Shown here one piece after another: positions 6,574 through 13,572 of a DNA stretch of 64,000 bases (positions are counted from its first letter, which is position 1; each line of letters begins with the position of its first letter). The notes under the pieces were generated by a model, which saw only the letters and a list, made by a program, of their open reading frames with translations, was not told where the DNA came from and ran no database searches. Origin of the DNA: Slackia heliotrinireducens DSM 20476 (GTDB taxonomy: Bacteria; Actinomycetota; Coriobacteriia; Coriobacteriales; Eggerthellaceae); contig NC_013165.1 of assembly GCF_000023885.1 (NCBI RefSeq), forward strand, positions 496,001 to 560,000, written 5' to 3'. The position numbers were made by a program, and so were the translations under genes.

Positions 6574-7173
6574 GTGAAGAAGACGTTGGCCCTGTTGGTA
6601 GCCGTGCTGGGCGCATGGCTTGTGGTGTCGCCGTGGTTCGTGGGCTATGCCGACATGCCCACGAGGTTCGTGGATATGGCGCTTGGCGCGGTCCTTATCG
6701 TGCTGTTCGTGCTGCTGTCTTCGGCTTTGGGCAAAATCAAGCAAGGGGACAAGACCCCCAACGGGCATCTGACGGCCATGATGGTTGTCGGTGTGGTTCT
6801 GGTGGTCGAAGGCATCGTGGGCGCTGTTGCGCTGGGCCATTCGGTGGGATCCGTGGTGAACGAAATCGTGGTCGGCGTGCTGGTGGCCGCCTTCGCACGC
6901 TTCGCCATGCTGGTGCCGGATGTGAAGAAGGTCGGCATGAACGGTCTGGACGACCGCGAGATCATGCTTATCCAGAAGATCGGCGTGATGGAGGATTGCA
7001 ATGCCATCCAGATGCGCTGCAAGGCCTTCGGCAGCATGCCGCTGGCGGTGAAAATTACTCCTGAGCAGCTGCTGAGCCTTCTTGGCATCATTCCTTTCGA
7101 ACTGGTGAAAGCCCTGCCGAAGATGCTTCTTGAGGGCATCAAGGGATCCAAGGCCCAGGACCAGTCGAAATAA
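6574..7173 (+). CDS. Four-helix membrane protein of unknown function
   Basis: The predicted product is 199 residues with about four hydrophobic helices: residues 5-25, 33-52, 67-88 and 93-113. The first contains VSPWFVGY, reminiscent of SPW-repeat membrane proteins. A soluble C-terminal region of about 85 residues contains a LIQKIGVMEDCNAIQMRCKAFG stretch. GTG at 6574 is preferred because GAGGAG lies 9 bases upstream; the earlier ATG at 6565 would overlap that site. I recognise no enzymatic motif. Confidence 0.65.
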   Translation: MKKTLALLVAVLGAWLVVSPWFVGYADMPTRFVDMALGAVLIVLFVLLSSALGKIKQGDKTPNGHLTAMMVVGVVLVVEGIVGAVALGHSVGSVVNEIVVGVLVAAFARFAMLVPDVKKVGMNGLDDREIMLIQKIGVMEDCNAIQMRCKAFGSMPLAVKITPEQLLSLLGIIPFELVKALPKMLLEGIKGSKAQDQSK

Positions 7174-7238
7174 TCGCGTGTGACGTGTGATGCGGGGGTT
7201 TCGAATCGAGCACGATTCCCTTGCAGAGTCACACTTTG

Positions 7239-7265
7239 AAGGCCAGGTCACACGACCTGGCCTTT
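7239..7265 (+). terminator. Intrinsic terminator
   Basis: Stem AAGGCCAGGT / ACCTGGCCTT is followed by T residues, downstream of the membrane-protein gene. Confidence 0.8.
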
Positions 7266-7350
7266 CCCATATTGGAGCGTGCGTCTGCGGGGTTTTGGAA
7301 CAGGGGACGGGTTTGGTGTTCCACGCTTGCGGGTGGACTTTGGGGACACT

Positions 7351-7356
7351 GATAAT
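7351..7356 (+). promoter_or_regulatory. Left-end half of a split promoter (-10 box GATAAT)
   Basis: GATAAT matches the TATAAT consensus at five of six positions and lies 3-4 bases inside the element. The perfect TTGACA near the right terminus (8829-8834) would come to lie 17-18 bp upstream if the two ends were joined in a circle. As integrated, the left end has no good -35 box. Confidence 0.65.
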
Positions 7357-7362
7357 TGACTT

Positions 7363-7583
7363 GGCCGGGTTGGCGTGCGCCACCCGGCTGGGCGATAATG
7401 GCGCCGGGCCCGCCCCAGTGACCCCATTAGGGACCGTCCGCGCGAGCGTGACCTTGCTCCGATCAGTCCTGGAGGGCCCGGCGCCGGAGGCCATTCCCAT
7501 GACCTCATAGGAGCTTGGCGTTGCCGCCTTCGCACCCGAAACAAGCGAAGTGTACCACACGCCCCGTCAGTGTCTTGTCTGGG
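7363..7583 (+). ncRNA. Predicted IS110 bridge RNA in the left end
   Basis: This noncoding left-end segment folds in the bridge-RNA pattern. A 5' hairpin (CCGGGT / ACCCGG, 7365-7387) is followed by a 12-bp perfect stem (GGCGCCGGGCCC at 7400-7411 with 7474-7485) enclosing a loop. That loop holds TTAGGGAC (7427-7434), near-identical to the left target half TTGGGGAC, and GCTCCG (7456-7461), the reverse complement of the right target half CGGAGC. A second loop holds ATAGGAGC (7507-7514), identical to the element's right terminus, and TCAGTGTC (7567-7574), the reverse complement of the left terminus GACACTGA. CCCATGAC / GTCTGGG may close it. RNA ends are estimates. Confidence 0.75.
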
Positions 7584-7633
7584 ACGGACCCTCCGCCGCC
7601 GCGAACCTGGAAAAGAAGGACGAGGGAGGGTGA

Positions 7634-8842
7634 ATGGAGTGCACGGCAGGGGCGCCGGCGTTCGCCGGCGTCGACACCCACAAGGAGACGAACATGCTGG
7701 CCCTCAAGGACGGGCTCGGCCGCACGGTCGGAATCTGGGAGTTCCCGGCGAACCCCGCCGGCTACGACGCGCTCGCCGACGCGATCGGCGACACCTCCGT
7801 GCCGGTCGGCGTCGAGGGCGCCCGGTCCTACGGCGCGGGCCTCGCGCAGAGGCTCGCCGAGCTCGGCTACGAGGTCCGCGAGGTCGTCAGGCCGCGCCGC
7901 GAGCAGCGCCGCCGCGGCAAGACCGACGAGATCGACGCGCTGGCGGCGTGCGACAACCTGGCCGCCGGCAGGAGCATGCCCGCCAAGGAGATGGAGGGGG
8001 GCGCCGCGGCCCTGCGCTGGCTGATGGTCGCCCGCGAGCAGGAGGTCGCCCACATGACGAGGCTCGCCTGCTGCATGGACTCCATGCTGGTCACGGCGCC
8101 CTACGGCGTCCGCGAACGGTGGCGCGGCCTCGAAGGCGCCGCCCTGATGCGGGCCGTCGCCGCGGGCAGGCCCAAGGACGCGGCCGGCCGCACGATGAGG
8201 GAGGTCGCGAAAAGCTGGCTGGGGGCCGAGGCGCGCGCGGGCAGGCTCGAGGCGGAGATCCTGGAGCTGATGGCGCGCTCGTACCCCGCCCTGATCGGCG
8301 CGCCGTGCGTCGGCGCGATCAGCGGCGCCCGCATCGTCCTGGCCGCCGGGTCCAACCCGTCCCGCCTGGGCGGCGAGGCCGCCTTCTCGATGCTCTGCGG
8401 CACCTCGCCCGTGCCCGCGTCGTCGGGCAACACCGTCCGGCACCGCCTGAACCGGGGCGGCAACCGCCAGGCCAACCGGGCCGTCCACGAGATCGCCCGC
8501 GCGAGGATGTCCCACGACCCGCGCACGAAGGCCTACATCGCGCGGAAGATGTCGGAGGGCAAGACCAAGCGCGAGGCCGTCCGCTGCCTGTGCCGCTACA
8601 TCGCCCGCGAAATCTACCGCCTGCTCACGGGCCCGCAGGAGCCCCCCTGCGACCAGTCCGCCCTCGCGGAGAGGCGCAAGGCCTGCGGCCTGACCCAGAG
8701 GCAGGCGGCGGAGGGCGCGGGAATCACGAGGGCGAAGGTCGGTGGGCTCGAGAGGCTCGCCGAGTTCGACACCGAATCGCTGCTGAGATACGACGCGTTC
8801 CTAAGGGAGGTGGAGGCGGAAAAGGGGCTTGACAGCATATAG
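7634..8842 (+). CDS. IS110-family DEDD transposase with a C-terminal helix-turn-helix domain
   Basis: This 402-residue recombinase has the RuvC-like N-terminal domain of IS110 transposases, with acidic residues at Asp14 (GVDTHKE), Glu61 (VGVEGARS) and Asp98/Asp101 (KTDEIDA). The Transposase_20 domain follows at about residues 220-330, with PASSGNTVRHRLNRGGNRQ; Ser263 or Ser264 is the likely catalytic serine. The protein then continues for some 60 residues into an XRE-like helix-turn-helix (AERRKACGLTQRQAAEGAGI, about 346-365), which most characterised IS110 transposases lack. GAGGGAGGGTGA precedes the ATG. The -35 box TTGACA overlaps the last codons. The frame is intact. Confidence 0.9.
   Translation: MECTAGAPAFAGVDTHKETNMLALKDGLGRTVGIWEFPANPAGYDALADAIGDTSVPVGVEGARSYGAGLAQRLAELGYEVREVVRPRREQRRRGKTDEIDALAACDNLAAGRSMPAKEMEGGAAALRWLMVAREQEVAHMTRLACCMDSMLVTAPYGVRERWRGLEGAALMRAVAAGRPKDAAGRTMREVAKSWLGAEARAGRLEAEILELMARSYPALIGAPCVGAISGARIVLAAGSNPSRLGGEAAFSMLCGTSPVPASSGNTVRHRLNRGGNRQANRAVHEIARARMSHDPRTKAYIARKMSEGKTKREAVRCLCRYIAREIYRLLTGPQEPPCDQSALAERRKACGLTQRQAAEGAGITRAKVGGLERLAEFDTESLLRYDAFLREVEAEKGLDSI
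8829..8834 (+). promoter_or_regulatory. Right-end half of a split promoter (-35 box TTGACA)
   Basis: A perfect sigma-70 -35 hexamer overlaps the last transposase codons, 14 bases from the right terminus. No -10 box follows it in the integrated state. In a circular junction it would be 17-18 bp upstream of GATAAT in the left end, as reported for other IS110 elements. Confidence 0.65.
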
Positions 8843-8849
8843 GAGCATC

Positions 8850-8997
8850 GGAGCCTTTTGTCCGTTCGTTGGTGGACTTTGGGGACGGAGCCTTTCGTCC
8901 GTTCGTTGACGCTCGGTGGATAATGTCCACCGATGGGACAAAGGGCTACGTCCCCAATGTCCACAATGTCCACCCAATGTCCACCCCCGTTCCATCC
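8850..8997. repeat. GGGGACGGAG-family repeats: IS110 right flank arm and one further palindrome
   Basis: The first about 22 bases are the right half of the repeat split by the IS110 element. Next comes GTGGACTTTGGGGACGGAG (from 8871) with a diverged inverse partner, CTACGTCCCCAATGTCCAC (to about 8965), and two more short GTCCAC iterations. This fills most of the gap between the transposase and the SWIM gene; nothing else is seen there. Confidence 0.7.
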
Positions 8998-9154
8998 TGC
9001 GGTCTGGCTTCGGATTGCAACCTGCGTTTCGCACTTTGGCGCCAAGGCGGGCGTGCCTTTCGATACGCAAATCTCTTCCAGATACGCGTTGCAGCATTTC
9101 AAGGCTGCTTCGACGCGATACTATGTCCCAAACAACGGAAGAGAAGGTGACCTC

Positions 9155-10888
9155 ATGATTGAAAACTGGCGCGGTGCATTTACCGACCGCATTCTCGAGC
9201 GCGGGCGGAATTGCTGGCGCAACGGACAGGTAGCCATCAAAACGGCGAACGACACCACGTGCTCCGCCACCGTTGCGGGCACGCAGGTCTACAGAGTCAG
9301 TGTGCCGATGTCGGGCGCGCTTGCAAGGGCCACGTGCACATGCCCCCATTTCGCGAAGGGGAACATGTGCAAGCACATCGCAGCCGTCCTGTACGCGTTG
9401 GAAGCTGGCGATTCGAACGAGACGTGCGTCGAATCTCCTGTTCAAGACACTCAGGACATATCGTCCCGCGCCAATAGGGAGAACATTCTCGACATGATGT
9501 CGGAAGATGACCTGCGCGGCTTTGTCCGGGAGCTCATGGGTGAAGACGAGCGCCTGGAGCGTCGGGTTCTCTCTCGGATGGGCGTCGTTGACCTGAAGCA
9601 GGCGAAATCCGACCTCCGGAAGCTGACCACCGATCTCATGCGGACCTACGAGCACAGCGGCATGATTGACTGGAGATATTCGCTGGATTTCGAGAACGAG
9701 TATCTGGCAGGCGTTGACGACATCGTCGAGCCGTTCCGGACCACCCAAGACGTCGACGGGTTGATGGAGCTTGTCGTCGTCCGTTTAATGCAGCTCCAGC
9801 GCATACGCATCGACGATTCGGACGGGTTCTTCTCAACGGCTCTCTACCCTGTTCGAGACGATATGAAAAAAGCCTTCATCTGGGCAGACGTCAAGCAACG
9901 GCGCAAGATGCTCCAAACCCTGAATAGTTTTCTGCAGAAAAAACCTGGCACCAACCGCAACGACATGTACTGGTTTTTGGAGGACTGTGTCCAGGGTTTT
10001 CTGCTGGACGCGTTTCCAACCGATCCGGAACTTGCGCAGGACGTGATCGCCATGGCGGACAGCCGCATCGCCGAGCTGCCCGCGCAGTGCAATGACCGTG
10101 GCTATGACAGAAACGGAGCAGACCGTCGTCAATGGAAGATGGGGCGTTTGATGGCGCTGTCCAGCACGGATGCGTCCTTCGACGAGCTGACTGAAGCCGC
10201 TGATGAATTGCTTGGCGAAGCGAAGGCGGTACGTGTGCTTTCGGATGCGCTTTTGCGAGAGGGCAGGGTCGACGAGGCGTTGGGGATGTTGCGGGACAAC
10301 GTCGACGCTTTCGACGAGCGGCGTAGGGGAGACGATCGGCCGCCCCGTGTGGTTGACCGACTCATCGAGCTGACTGAGCAGTACAAACCCGTAGCCGAGC
10401 GAGAGGTGTTGCTGACTTGGCTTTTACAGAATCCTCCGGGCAAATGCTCCGCGAAAGACTTAGAGACATGGTATGACGCGCTGCATGGGTTGACGGGCGA
10501 ACAATCCTGGTCGCAGACGCGCGGGGCCTTGATGGCGACGATGCCGGCGGGTGCGAAGCAGACGTGCCTGGCGCACGAGGACTCTTTAGACGAGCTGTAC
10601 GAGTGCATCATGGCAGATGGCGGCGGGGATTTGTGGAAATACGAAAGCTTGCTTTCCGATCGGTATCCGCAGGCTTACCTCGAGTTGTATTTGGATCAGG
10701 CACGCTTCGAACTGAATAATTCGCGCGATCGTCGGGAATATAACCGGGCGGCGCGTGCCCTGAAGAAAGTGGTGGCCTTCGAAGGTGGGTTCGAAATCGC
10801 CCAGGCCGAGGCTGAGGCGGTCGTCGCGGCAAACCCGCGCAAGACTGCTCTGGCCGATGAGCTGCGCAAAGTTGGGTTTGCGGTCTAG
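9155..10888 (+). CDS. SWIM zinc-finger protein
   Basis: This 577-residue protein has an N-terminal SWIM motif CxCx(8)CxH, with Cys61, Cys63, Cys72 and His74 (CTCPHFAKGNMCKH), which binds zinc and is used for nucleic-acid or protein contact. The remaining 500 residues are mostly helical and charged, resembling the repeat-rich bodies of other bacterial SWIM proteins; no helicase or nuclease motif is seen. I chose the ATG at 9155, which follows AGAGAAGGTGAC and places the motif at a typical distance. The function is unknown. Confidence 0.75.
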   Translation: MIENWRGAFTDRILERGRNCWRNGQVAIKTANDTTCSATVAGTQVYRVSVPMSGALARATCTCPHFAKGNMCKHIAAVLYALEAGDSNETCVESPVQDTQDISSRANRENILDMMSEDDLRGFVRELMGEDERLERRVLSRMGVVDLKQAKSDLRKLTTDLMRTYEHSGMIDWRYSLDFENEYLAGVDDIVEPFRTTQDVDGLMELVVVRLMQLQRIRIDDSDGFFSTALYPVRDDMKKAFIWADVKQRRKMLQTLNSFLQKKPGTNRNDMYWFLEDCVQGFLLDAFPTDPELAQDVIAMADSRIAELPAQCNDRGYDRNGADRRQWKMGRLMALSSTDASFDELTEAADELLGEAKAVRVLSDALLREGRVDEALGMLRDNVDAFDERRRGDDRPPRVVDRLIELTEQYKPVAEREVLLTWLLQNPPGKCSAKDLETWYDALHGLTGEQSWSQTRGALMATMPAGAKQTCLAHEDSLDELYECIMADGGGDLWKYESLLSDRYPQAYLELYLDQARFELNNSRDRREYNRAARALKKVVAFEGGFEIAQAEAEAVVAANPRKTALADELRKVGFAV

Positions 10889-11018
10889 GGCCACGCCGTT
10901 TCCCGTTCCAAACCCGCCTCTTTGTTTCGCCCTGGCATCTCGTCTGCCGTTCAAGCCTGTGCTACACTCGACGGCGAAGGTGCCGCATCCATCGGCGTGC
11001 GACTGGCAGGAGGTCGTC

Positions 11019-11558
11019 ATGGGTCGAAAGCCGTATTCGAACGTGTACAACATCATGCTTCCTGTGTGGCTGCTTGTGTTCTGGCCATCGTATCTGTGGC
11101 TGTTGCTCATCCCGCTGAATTACCTGATAGACCGCATCGTTTTGAAGTGGGGTCTAGGGAAGATGCCCGATGCGGGCGCGTTCTGCCGGCGCCATACGTG
11201 GAAGATCTGCCTGGCTGGATTCGCCAGCGATTTCGTCGGCATGCTCATGTTGCTGGCATTGTTCCTGATTCCGACGCTGGCGGCGGACGGCTCTGCGTTC
11301 GAGGCCGTGATTCACGACATCGGATACGGCATTGGGTTCAATCCTTTCACGAACATTGTGGCGTTTCTCGTTGTGGCTTTGGCCGTGGCGGTATCGGGGT
11401 TGTGCATTTACGCGCTGGACCGGTTCATCCTCGTCCGGGCGGGCCTCGATCCGGTCCAGGCCAAGCGCTGCGCATTGCGCCTGGCCCTGATAACTGCTCC
11501 GTACCTGTTCTTCTTCCCGTCGAGCATCATCTACAGCCCACCGTTCTACACGTTCTAG
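11019..11558 (+). CDS. Integral membrane protein of unknown function
   Basis: The predicted product is 179 residues with about four hydrophobic segments, near residues 12-36, 61-81, 103-125 and 148-170. The ATG at 11019 follows GGCAGGAGGTCGTC, a strong ribosome site. I find no recognisable motif. It lies 130 bases after the SWIM gene on the same strand and ends just before the solitary IS110 left end. Confidence 0.6.
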   Translation: MGRKPYSNVYNIMLPVWLLVFWPSYLWLLLIPLNYLIDRIVLKWGLGKMPDAGAFCRRHTWKICLAGFASDFVGMLMLLALFLIPTLAADGSAFEAVIHDIGYGIGFNPFTNIVAFLVVALAVAVSGLCIYALDRFILVRAGLDPVQAKRCALRLALITAPYLFFFPSSIIYSPPFYTF

Positions 11559-11587
11559 CGCGGCCTGGACGTTGGGTGGACTTTGGG

Positions 11588-11817
11588 GACACTGATAATT
11601 GACTTGGCCGGGTTGGCGTGCGCCGCCCGGCTGGGCGATAATGGCACCGGGCCCGCCCCAGTGACCCCATTGGGGACCGTCCGCGCGAGCGTGACCTCGC
11701 TCCGATCAGTCCTGGAGGGCCCGGCGCCGGAGGCCATTCCCATGACCTCATAGGAGCTTGGCGTTCCCGCCTTCGCACCCGAAACAAGCGAAGTGTACCA
11801 CACGCCCCGTCAGTGTC
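11588..11817 (+). ncRNA. Solitary IS110 left end with a conserved bridge-RNA-like region
   Basis: This 230-bp segment differs from 7345-7574 at only five positions with no length change, yet has no transposase or right end. All four guide-like segments persist: TTGGGGAC (11670-11677, now identical to the repeat target), GCTCCG (11699-11704), ATAGGAGC (11750-11757) and TCAGTGTC (11810-11817). One change in the 5' hairpin keeps pairing as G-U; another puts an A-C mismatch in the 12-bp stem. It begins in a repeat arm (GGACTTTGGGGAC), as the full element does, and stops exactly at the last guide, running into a repeat arm of opposite orientation. Transcription is unproven. Confidence 0.65.
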
Positions 11818-11998
11818 AACGAACGGACAAAAGGCTCCGTCCCCATCGTCCCGCACGTCGCCGATGTCCCGCAGAACGTCAACGAACGGACAAAAGGCTC
11901 CGTCCCCATCGTCCCGCACGTCGCCGATGTCCCGCAGAACGTCAACGAACGGACAAAAGGCTCCGTCCCCAGTGTCCCGCACCCAGTGTCCCGCACGA
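11815..11998. repeat. 63-bp tandem array of GGGGACGGAG-family arms
   Basis: Units start at 11815, 11878 and 11941. The first two are identical over 63 bp; the third diverges after about 30 bases. Each carries GTCAACGAACGGACAAAAGG and CTCCGTCCCC, then GTCCCGCA-type iterations. With the solitary IS110 left end it accounts for most of the gap from 11559 to 12174. Confidence 0.85.
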
Positions 11999-12174
11999 GA
12001 GAGGGCCATTCGGCCCATTTGTCGCGTTCTGGTTGTTGCAAGGCCTCTGGAAATGTAAAACTATATATACATGCGATGACAGCGCCCGCTGCCCGGTTGC
12101 GCTGCTGAGCTGGTTGTTGGGCCGCAGGGGAGTCTGCCGCGGCAATGCCGTCGGCTTAACGAAGGAGGAACGTC

Positions 12175-13572
12175 ATGTCACGCGCGTCGACCCGCAATTC
12201 CGTTCGCCGTTTCCGCTTGCTGCTGGCCTTCGCTATGGCCGTTGTTTTCGCGCTGGGCTTCGGCGTTGCGGGATGCTCGTCGGACGGATCGGATGAAGGC
12301 GCCGACGAAATCGCCGCGCCCGTCCAGGCGGACTATTACGGCCAATGGGTCGTATCCTCCATCGAATCCGACGGCGGCGGCAGCGGCATCACGAACCAAG
12401 AGGAGCTCGAATCCCAGAAGGAACTCGGAAACGATACGGTTTTCACCTTTAACGAAGACGGCTCGGCGACGTTGACCCTGTACGGCTCCGATTTCGAAGC
12501 CACCTGGGATTATGCGGACTCGGGCGAAAGCACCGTGGAGGTTTTGGGCGAAACCTTCGATATGGACGTTTCCGGCAACACCCTCACGCTCACCAAGGAT
12601 GACACGGTATTCAACTGCAAGCGCTACGGCGCTGCTGCTCCGACGATCAGCGACGAGCGGACGTCGCTTGCCGACGTGAAAGGGTACGTCGGCGACCGCC
12701 AGAGCCCCGAGCTGCGTCCCGGCTGGAACGAAAGCGACGGCAAGCGCATCTACGTGAACGAAGACGGCTCGCTGCCCGACGGTTGGATGGACGTGGACGG
12801 CGCCAAGTACTGCTTCGTGCACGGCGCTCCGCGCACGGGCTTGTTCCTGGACGGCGACTACTACTACTTCACGAACGAAGAAGGCGCCATGCAGACCGGC
12901 TGGCAGGACATCGACATGGACCGCTACTACTTCGATCAGGAATCCGGTCAGGCGCTCATCGGCTGGCAGCAGCTCGACGGCGCGTGGTACGCCTTCGACG
13001 AGCAGGGCAGGATGCATACCCAGTGGTACCGCATCTCTGAGTCCGAAGAGTACTACATGGGTGACGACGGCAAGATGTGCACCGGCTGGGTGGACATCGA
13101 AGGGTCCTCATACTATTTCGATGCGAACGGCAAGCTGCAGAAGGACACTTGGATAGGCAACAACTACGTGAACGAATCCGGCCAGTGGGTCGAGGGCATC
13201 AAGCCGCTGCCCGACAGCGGCACGGTGTTCGTGGGCGGATCGGGCATCTCATCTGCCACCGTGGAGGGCAGTACGGATCGCAACGCTCTGGTCAAGTTCA
13301 AGGACGGCTCGGGCAACGAGGTTGCGGTGTTCTTCGTGGGCAAGGGCGAAACCGTGACCGTGAGCATGCCTGGTGGTTACTACTATATGTATGTCGCGTA
13401 CGGCGGCGACCAGTGGTACGGCGAAGACAGCGAATACCCCTTCGGCGACGAAACCACCTTCTCGAAGGATGACGAAGGCGCCGACTTCTCCAACTACACT
13501 TGGCAATACACGCTGTATACGGTTTCTAACGGCAACCTGCACATGGACTCCATCGGAGCCGACGAATTCTAG
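12175..13572 (+). CDS. Lipoprotein with cell-wall/choline-binding-type repeats
   Basis: This 465-residue protein has a basic N-terminus, a hydrophobic stretch and a lipobox ending at Cys34 (VAGC), so it is predicted to be surface anchored. Residues about 50-150 form a lipocalin-like beta domain. From about 180 to 340 there are six or so degenerate 20-residue repeats of the form GW-x-DG-x-YYF-x-G, typical of CW_binding_1 (choline/glucan-binding) modules. The last 110 residues look like a separate beta domain. AAGGAGGAACGTC precedes the ATG. It is likely a cell-envelope or polysaccharide-binding protein; the ligand is unknown. Confidence 0.75.
   Translation: MSRASTRNSVRRFRLLLAFAMAVVFALGFGVAGCSSDGSDEGADEIAAPVQADYYGQWVVSSIESDGGGSGITNQEELESQKELGNDTVFTFNEDGSATLTLYGSDFEATWDYADSGESTVEVLGETFDMDVSGNTLTLTKDDTVFNCKRYGAAAPTISDERTSLADVKGYVGDRQSPELRPGWNESDGKRIYVNEDGSLPDGWMDVDGAKYCFVHGAPRTGLFLDGDYYYFTNEEGAMQTGWQDIDMDRYYFDQESGQALIGWQQLDGAWYAFDEQGRMHTQWYRISESEEYYMGDDGKMCTGWVDIEGSSYYFDANGKLQKDTWIGNNYVNESGQWVEGIKPLPDSGTVFVGGSGISSATVEGSTDRNALVKFKDGSGNEVAVFFVGKGETVTVSMPGGYYYMYVAYGGDQWYGEDSEYPFGDETTFSKDDEGADFSNYTWQYTLYTVSNGNLHMDSIGADEF

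What the first reader, a model, noticed from the sequence alone, without database searches (positions are those of the whole stretch)
7345..8855. IS110 element whose left end encodes a bridge RNA with guides matching a REP-like target
The left end holds a 12-bp perfect stem enclosing TTAGGGAC and GCTCCG. These match, respectively, the left half (TTGGGGAC, same sense, one mismatch) and the right half (CGGAGC, reverse complement) of the repeat split by the element. A second loop holds ATAGGAGC, equal to the right terminus (8838-8845), and TCAGTGTC, the complement of the left terminus. The same-sense left guides and antisense right guides are the bridge-RNA logic known from IS621-type elements (established knowledge). 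Applied here, the element should target the GGGGAC/GGAGCC core of the family's palindromes (inference).
Basis: partly seen in the sequence, partly recalled or inferred. Interest (0 to 1): 0.85.

Follow-up and report, generated by a model that had tools for sequence, protein, structure and literature searches.

The report
RNA-guided jumping gene targeting repeats
This is a small mobile DNA element that carries the gene for its own guide RNA, which reads one address in the bacterium's repeated sequences and another on the element itself; the principle is known, but in this branch the two addresses appear to share only one base at the crossover instead of two.

Summary
Window 7348-8849 is a 1,502-bp IS110-group insertion sequence in a REP-like repeat (empty site GGGGAC|GGAGCC, 39 copies in the genome). 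Its left non-coding end encodes a predicted bridge RNA: perfect 12-bp stem, target loop, donor loop, and a promoter formed only across the circle junction. Twenty-nine elements in 15 clades show covarying helices (16 sequences aligned) and guides that track each element's own insertion site (0 of 100,000 permutations as good for left target guide and for right junction, also with the least favourable clade members). So it is a new member of a known kind. The tools add a twist: target and donor differ at the first core base in 21 of 24 elements (donor T) and share the second (C). The right guides mostly spell the recombined junctions, not the starting DNA: the right target guide pairs with donor bases 7-8, the right donor guide with target bases 7-8. 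This fits the 'handshake' pairing known from IS621 and extends it into the core; three elements of two sister clades fit less well. Exchange with a one-base overlap, or biased repair, is inference; no RNA or activity data exist here.

The parts
7340..7347 (+). left half of the target repeat, TTGGGGAC; core bases 8-9 = AC (7346-7347)
   Evidence: empty sites
7348..8849 (+). IS110-group element, 1,502 bp
   Evidence: boundaries from two full copies and empty sites
7348..7352 (+). right-donor half site ACTGA (left terminus)
7351..7356 (+). -10-like GATAAT of the circle-junction promoter
   Evidence: seen at many homologues' left ends
7364..7590 (+). predicted bridge RNA (ends inferred from promoter and last guide)
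   Evidence: fold -108 kcal/mol, z -2.79; covarying helices
7400..7411 (+). 5' arm of the perfect 12-bp stem of the target loop
7426..7434 (+). left target guide ATTAGGGAC
7456..7463 (+). right target guide GCTCC + core partner GA + handshake T; complementary to ATC|GGAGC
7474..7485 (+). 3' arm of the 12-bp stem
7507..7514 (+). left donor guide ATAGGAGC, equal to the right end
7567..7574 (+). right donor guide TCAGT + core partner GT + handshake C; complementary to GAC|ACTGA
7634..8842 (+). DEDD recombinase, 402 aa, with a weak C-terminal helix-turn-helix match
   Evidence: Pfam DEDD_Tnp_IS110, Transposase_20, HTH_3; invariant D14 E61 D98 D101 S264 G265 in 13 sequences
8829..8834 (+). -35-like TTGACA, 18 bp from GATAAT in the circle
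8839..8849 (+). right end ATAGGAGCATC; donor core bases 8-9 = TC
8850..8855 (+). right half of the target repeat, GGAGCC
11591..11817 (+). solo left end with all four guides but no recombinase and no right end; it stops right after the right donor guide, so the 3' arm of the donor-loop closing helix is missing; probably a remnant
   Evidence: 98% identical

Best explanation
An IS110-group element that moves by bridge-RNA-guided recombination. Seen in the sequence: an excised circle would join the right end to the left end and create a -35/-10 promoter firing into a structured RNA. One loop of that RNA can pair with the REP-like target (left guide on the bottom strand, right guide on the top), the other with the element's own ends. 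Inferred from IS621: a tetramer of the DEDD/Ser recombinase cuts both top strands after the core and swaps them. In this clade core base 9 (C) is common to target and donor, base 8 as a rule is not. The right target guide and right donor guide are mostly written for the swapped strands at positions 7 and 8, so pairing would be completed only after exchange.
For: Protein family and catalytic residues; profile matches to ISCro4 (7.4e-15) and IS621 (1.7e-13) structures. RNA helices: 89.8% of cells paired versus 73.4% shuffled and 35-42% slid, 15 of 25 pairs with two-sided changes (16 sequences). Left target guide: at least 8/9 in 12 of 15 clade representatives, against 7 of 204 non-cognate pairs; permutation 0 of 100,000, and 0 again with the least favourable member of each clade. 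Right junction: at least 7/8 in 13 of 14 against 16 of 178; 0 of 100,000, while the empty target read the same way gives 4,900 and 41,049 (8 elements) of 100,000. Handshake: right target guide pairs donor position 8 in 21 of 24 (3 wobble) and position 7 in 23 of 24; right donor guide pairs target position 8 in 23 of 29 (4 wobble) and position 7 in 24 of 29 (3 wobble). Empty sites: 39 GGGGACGGAGCC, reversed control 0; 17 of 18 TGGGGNCGGAGCC have A, none T, reversed control 2. Joining the flanks of six relatives inside genes gives an open frame with a recognisable transposase motif. In 21 relatives of the wider phylum sample the right-junction signal is 0 of 20,000 permutations.
Against: No transcript, circle or activity was seen. 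This copy's left guide has a mismatch to its site and alone is not beyond chance. Left guides are weak in clade B (6-7/9 in four of four) and clade E (6-7/9 in three of three, best matches outside the target loop). With eight least favourable elements whose left boundary was set by the -10 motif alone, the left-guide permutation gives 17 of 100,000. In three elements of clades I and J the right target guide pairs with target base 8 by Watson-Crick rules and with donor base 8 only by wobble. Donor base T8 is constant, so that side cannot covary. L076 fits neither handshake base of the donor loop. L086 shows two extra bases at the left junction. In the wider set 5 of 21 elements miss the right-junction match (one, L135, has 1 nt of flank), at least four of the 16 matches (L120, L139, L141, L144) look out of the target-loop register by eye, and left guides reached 8/9 in only 7 of 21.
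Confidence: 0.93

Rival explanations
1. The short matches are accidents in a GC-rich left end next to palindromic repeats; the IS110 enzyme picks sites by protein contacts.
For: The left guide match of the window copy alone is met by 593 of 5,000 shuffles.
Against: Guides track sites across clades with different sites, the sense/antisense-swapped controls give no signal (28,237 and 11,606 of 100,000), and the RNA helices covary.
Confidence: 0.02
2. The core is an identical dinucleotide as in IS621 and the apparent split core comes from misplaced boundaries.
For: IS621 strongly prefers matching CT cores (PMC11208160, passages); L075 and L086 have ambiguous junctions; in clades I and J the right target guide fits the target core.
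Against: Empty sites have A (17 of 18) or G (83 of 94) at position 8, hardly T (0 and 2); five of six joined gene sites place a base other than T in the target (in L059 it is T); right ends carry T8 in 24 of 24.
Confidence: 0.07
3. The overlap is two bases and a mismatched heteroduplex forms, repaired or inherited in favour of the top strand.
For: IS621 uses a two-base core (PMC11208158, passages).
Against: 24 of 24 right junctions keep T8, though target base 8 differs in 21 of them; a random outcome would give about half. A one-base overlap needs no repair bias.
Confidence: 0.35

Closest known systems
IS621 (E. coli, IS110 group; PMC11208160, PMC11208158)
   Same: DEDD plus Ser recombinase, bridge RNA in the long left end, four guides with the same sense/antisense logic, circle-junction promoter, REP target, handshake pairing at position 7.
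   Different: IS621 has the same CT core in target and donor and in all four guide pairings; here the cores are as a rule NC and TC. The window recombinase has a weak C-terminal helix-turn-helix match. Similarity to IS621 was found by profile, not by single-sequence search.
ISCro4 (PDB 9t56)
   Same: Same protein family; best profile match.
   Different: Distant sequence; no RNA or target comparison made here.
seekRNA elements ISEc21 (IS110) and ISPa11 (IS1111, REP-targeting) (PMC11187229, passages)
   Same: Element-encoded RNA with short matches to both target strands; for IS110 the bottom-strand match comes first, as here.
   Different: IS1111 members have the RNA downstream and subterminal inverted repeats; here the RNA is upstream.

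Membership tests
IS110 group (bridge-RNA recombinases) | DEDD RuvC-like domain plus Transposase_20 domain with SG serine | tested here: met
   (13 of 13 members carry both domains)
IS110 group (bridge-RNA recombinases) | long non-coding left end holding the RNA, short right end | tested here: met
   286 nt before the ORF, 7 nt after its stop
IS110 group (bridge-RNA recombinases) | RNA with target loop and donor loop, conserved structure | tested here: met
   (predicted structure)
IS110 group (bridge-RNA recombinases) | guides covary with target and donor | tested here: met
IS110 group (bridge-RNA recombinases) | promoter rebuilt at the circle junction | tested here: met
   TTGACA-18-GATAAT by sequence only
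IS110 group (bridge-RNA recombinases) | expressed RNA bound to recombinase; RNA-dependent recombination | not testable with these tools
   no RNA or biochemical data
IS621 mechanism in detail | identical core dinucleotide in target, donor and all four guides | tested here: not met
   left NC, right TC; left donor guide has G where donor position 9 is C in 19 of 24
IS621 mechanism in detail | handshake pairing of position 7 with the opposite loop | tested here: met
   23 of 24 and 24 of 29
IS1111 group | RNA downstream of the recombinase | tested here: not met
   RNA lies upstream; right end only 7 nt after the stop
IS1111 group | subterminal inverted repeats of 7-17 bp | not tested
   no dedicated repeat search of the ends was run
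Rfam families | match to a curated RNA model | tested here: not met
   one hit, on the other strand, far below its cut-off (24 versus 54.5 bits)

The most novel reading that the evidence does not exclude
A branch of IS110 elements in Actinomycetota recombines DNAs that share a single core base. Its bridge RNAs are written for the product: right guides pair imperfectly with the starting target and donor at positions 7-8 and fully only after strand exchange. That would drive insertion forward and remove the identical-core limit of IS621-type editing.
Probability: 0.55. Interest if true: 0.7.

Novelty: new variant of a known kind. Interest (0 to 1): 0.5.

Why it matters
It supports, from evolution alone, the handshake step proposed from IS621 structures and covariation, and suggests natural bridge recombinases that do not need identical core dinucleotides. 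If functional, such enzymes could widen the choice of programmable insertion sites and bias the reaction towards insertion. It also gives a compact family with about a dozen natural guide-target pairs for testing.

Tried and rejected
Rfam search of 7000-12500 gave one sub-threshold hit. Matching the right guide to right-flank bases alone depends on length: five bases give a signal (10 of 100,000 permutations), seven bases little (5.5 against 5.27), six bases none in the wider set (10,982 of 20,000); it is strong when donor bases 7-9 are included. Two first attempts to find left junctions automatically in the wider set failed: one search stopped with a script error; one search used a window that excluded true junctions and gave no difference (13.19 against 13.16); one search changed the window and took the first donor-guide candidate only.

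Choices that could flatter the result: one search used L014 instead of the window copy and L062 instead of the weaker clade B members; one search repeats it with the least favourable members. Junction anchors were set by eye; for L064 (right) and L067, L083, L085, L075, L076 (left) the guide was in view, and the eight-element runs drop these. In one search the right-end pattern demanded TC, so that set says nothing about how often base 8 is T; the class set was scanned with AGGAGC or AGGGGC only. Clades I and J were left out of the RNA alignment. Not used: L066, L073, L100 (left end not resolved), L101 (no left end), L098, L065, L082, L084, L091, L097 and others fetched. A trans-acting role for the solo copy was considered and judged unlikely: no right end, so no circle promoter, and an incomplete donor loop.

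Papers: PMC11208160 (outline, sections 5 and 12, passages), PMC11208158 (section 11, passages), PMC11187229, PMC3035243 and PMC13174815 (passages only); all others as search listings. Extended Data Fig. 10c of PMC11208160 (ISAar29 and others) could not be seen and may already show unequal cores. I saw no unequal-core IS110 report in the listings, which cover open-licence PMC papers only.

Full report
What is there. At 7348-8849 lies a 1,502-bp element between TTGGGGAC (7340-7347) and GGAGCC (8850-8855). The uninterrupted 12-mer GGGGACGGAGCC occurs 39 times in the genome and its reversed control never. The genome holds five copies of the left end: this one, a full copy 95% identical (L014), a third cut short next to another ORF that looks like a transposase (L015), a solo left end in the window (11591-11817) and a stub of about 90 bp (L016).

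The protein. The ORF 7634-8842 has the two IS110 Pfam domains and a weak C-terminal helix-turn-helix match (HTH_3 23.1 bits, cut-off 23). In an alignment of 13 sequences the residues D14, E61, D98, D101 and the SG pair at 264-265 are invariant. By profile alignment these correspond to the IS621 catalytic residues named in PMC11208158 (the residue-by-residue assignment is mine). The commonest helix-turn-helix model is found in 7 of 13 members, some being truncated.

The RNA. The left end folds at -108 kcal/mol (z -2.79, 1 of 200 shuffles as low). Across 16 sequences the consensus of five helices has 89.8% of cells paired against 73.4% in shuffles and 35-42% when slid, with 15 of 25 pairs showing two-sided changes. 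The alignment was made by sequence, not fitted to the structure; the structure was derived from it. The right end carries TTGACA and the left end GATAAT, 18 bp apart once circularised; similar pairs are seen at many relatives' ends.

Guides against sites. Matches to the protein were found in 47 of 396 genomes of the class at E 1e-20 and 20 of 395 of the order at 1e-50; loci were taken for the best of them. I fixed boundaries for 29 elements in 15 clades. The last nine bases of the left flank are found in the element's own left end at 8/9 or better in 12 of 15 clade representatives, against 7 of 204 non-cognate pairs. The right junction, donor bases 7-9 plus target bases 10-14, is found antisense at 7/8 or better in 13 of 14, against 16 of 178. 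With 12 representatives no permutation of 100,000 reaches either observed sum; the left junction likewise gives 0. The strand-swapped controls give 28,237 and 11,606. Because one search used well-matched members, repeats it with the least favourable ones: 0 of 100,000 for the left guide (12 elements) and for the right junction (11 elements). With eight elements whose boundary owes nothing to the guide, it gives 17 and 0 of 100,000.

The split core. In 24 elements with both junctions, core bases 8-9 read AC (10), GC (8), CC (3) or TC (3) on the left and TC (23) or TT (1) on the right. That the left base belongs to the target is supported three ways. Empty sites in this genome have A in 17 of 18 and T in none (reversed pattern 2). 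Empty sites of clade B in four genomes of one genus have G in 83 of 94 and T in 2, counted by me, where the reversed pattern gave 33 hits. Joining the flanks of six relatives inside genes gives frames such as GDSYDNALIES, VWDNLNTHL and WSNNPPERLNREI (these resemble transposases of IS3, IS630 and IS256, recalled); five of the six have a base other than T.

Product-written guides. In IS621 the top strands are cut after core base 9, and after exchange the right target guide pairs with the incoming donor core and its handshake bases with donor 6-7, and vice versa (PMC11208158, section 11 and passages). Here the right target guide pairs with donor base 8 in 21 of 24 elements (3 wobble) and base 7 in 23 of 24, but with target base 8 in 6 of 24 and target base 7 in none by Watson-Crick rules (5 wobble). 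For four elements two equally good anchors existed and I took the one in the target loop; L070 was anchored outside that loop and is the one miss at position 7. The three wobble cases (clades I and J) fit the target core better. The right donor guide pairs with target base 8 in 23 of 29 (4 wobble, 2 mismatched) and base 7 in 24 of 29 (3 wobble, 2 mismatched), but with donor base 8 in 2 of 24 (3 wobble) and base 7 in 1 of 24 (1 wobble). All four bases occur at donor position 7 and at target position 8, so these are covariations; donor position 8 is constant. Read as a starting target, the same eight bases score little better than chance (4,900 of 100,000; 41,049 in the stricter set).

Wider sample. 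Forty-two of 396 genomes drawn from the phylum match the family profile at E 1e-60. Of 27 loci examined, 23 had a right end by pattern and 21 of these enough left end; the right-junction match is 6.81 of 8 against 5.79 for non-cognate pairs, 0 of 20,000 permutations, with 16 of 21 at 7/8 or better. Left guides reached 8/9 or better in 7 of 21 against 8 of 420.

Mechanism and limits. The best account is bridge-RNA-guided insertion into REP-like repeats, with exchange stabilised by product pairing. Whether the overlap is one base or a repaired two-base heteroduplex is open; the first is simpler because 24 of 24 right junctions keep the donor base. Nothing here shows transcription, circles or activity.

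Novelty. IS110 elements with bridge RNAs, REP targets and handshake pairing at position 7 are known (PMC11208160, PMC11208158, PMC11187229). Unequal cores with guides written for the product through position 8 were not seen in the papers and listings examined, with the caveat that one relevant figure could not be viewed. The published boundary method took repeated core sequences at element ends (PMC11208160), which could overlook a one-base repeat (inference).

Noticed in passing
window 11591-11817: A solo left end, 98% identical, with all four guides intact but cut off right after the right donor guide, beside three tandem repeats on the minus strand. The breakpoint shares GTC with the repeat family, so a short-homology deletion is likely.
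   Followed up: partly
L016, about 930-1003: A left-end stub whose breakpoint also falls at CAGTG, a motif present in the flanking repeat family (compare window 11970-11990).
   Followed up: partly
L015:8390-8845 (minus): A 151-aa ORF resembling an IS200-type transposase (recalled, not searched) lies where the third copy of the element breaks off.
   Followed up: no
L126, L133, L140, L142, L137, L058, L059: Relatives sit inside genes that look like transposases of other insertion sequences, at conserved motifs; six were joined, L140 was not.
   Followed up: partly
left donor guides, e.g. window 7507-7517: Donor position 9 is C but the left donor guide has G there (NTG) in the 19 of 24 elements anchored at that motif; the other five were anchored elsewhere; unexplained.
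   Followed up: no
genome of the window, 39 sites of GGGGACGGAGCC: REP-like repeats, several in inverted pairs; what spreads them was not examined.
   Followed up: no
L053 left end: A 44-bp tandem duplication of the left terminus, including the -10 motif.
   Followed up: no
L082-L085: Four copies in one genome (G074) have left flanks ending TGTCATCC and right flanks starting TGAGCG, matching the guides of that clade.
   Followed up: partly
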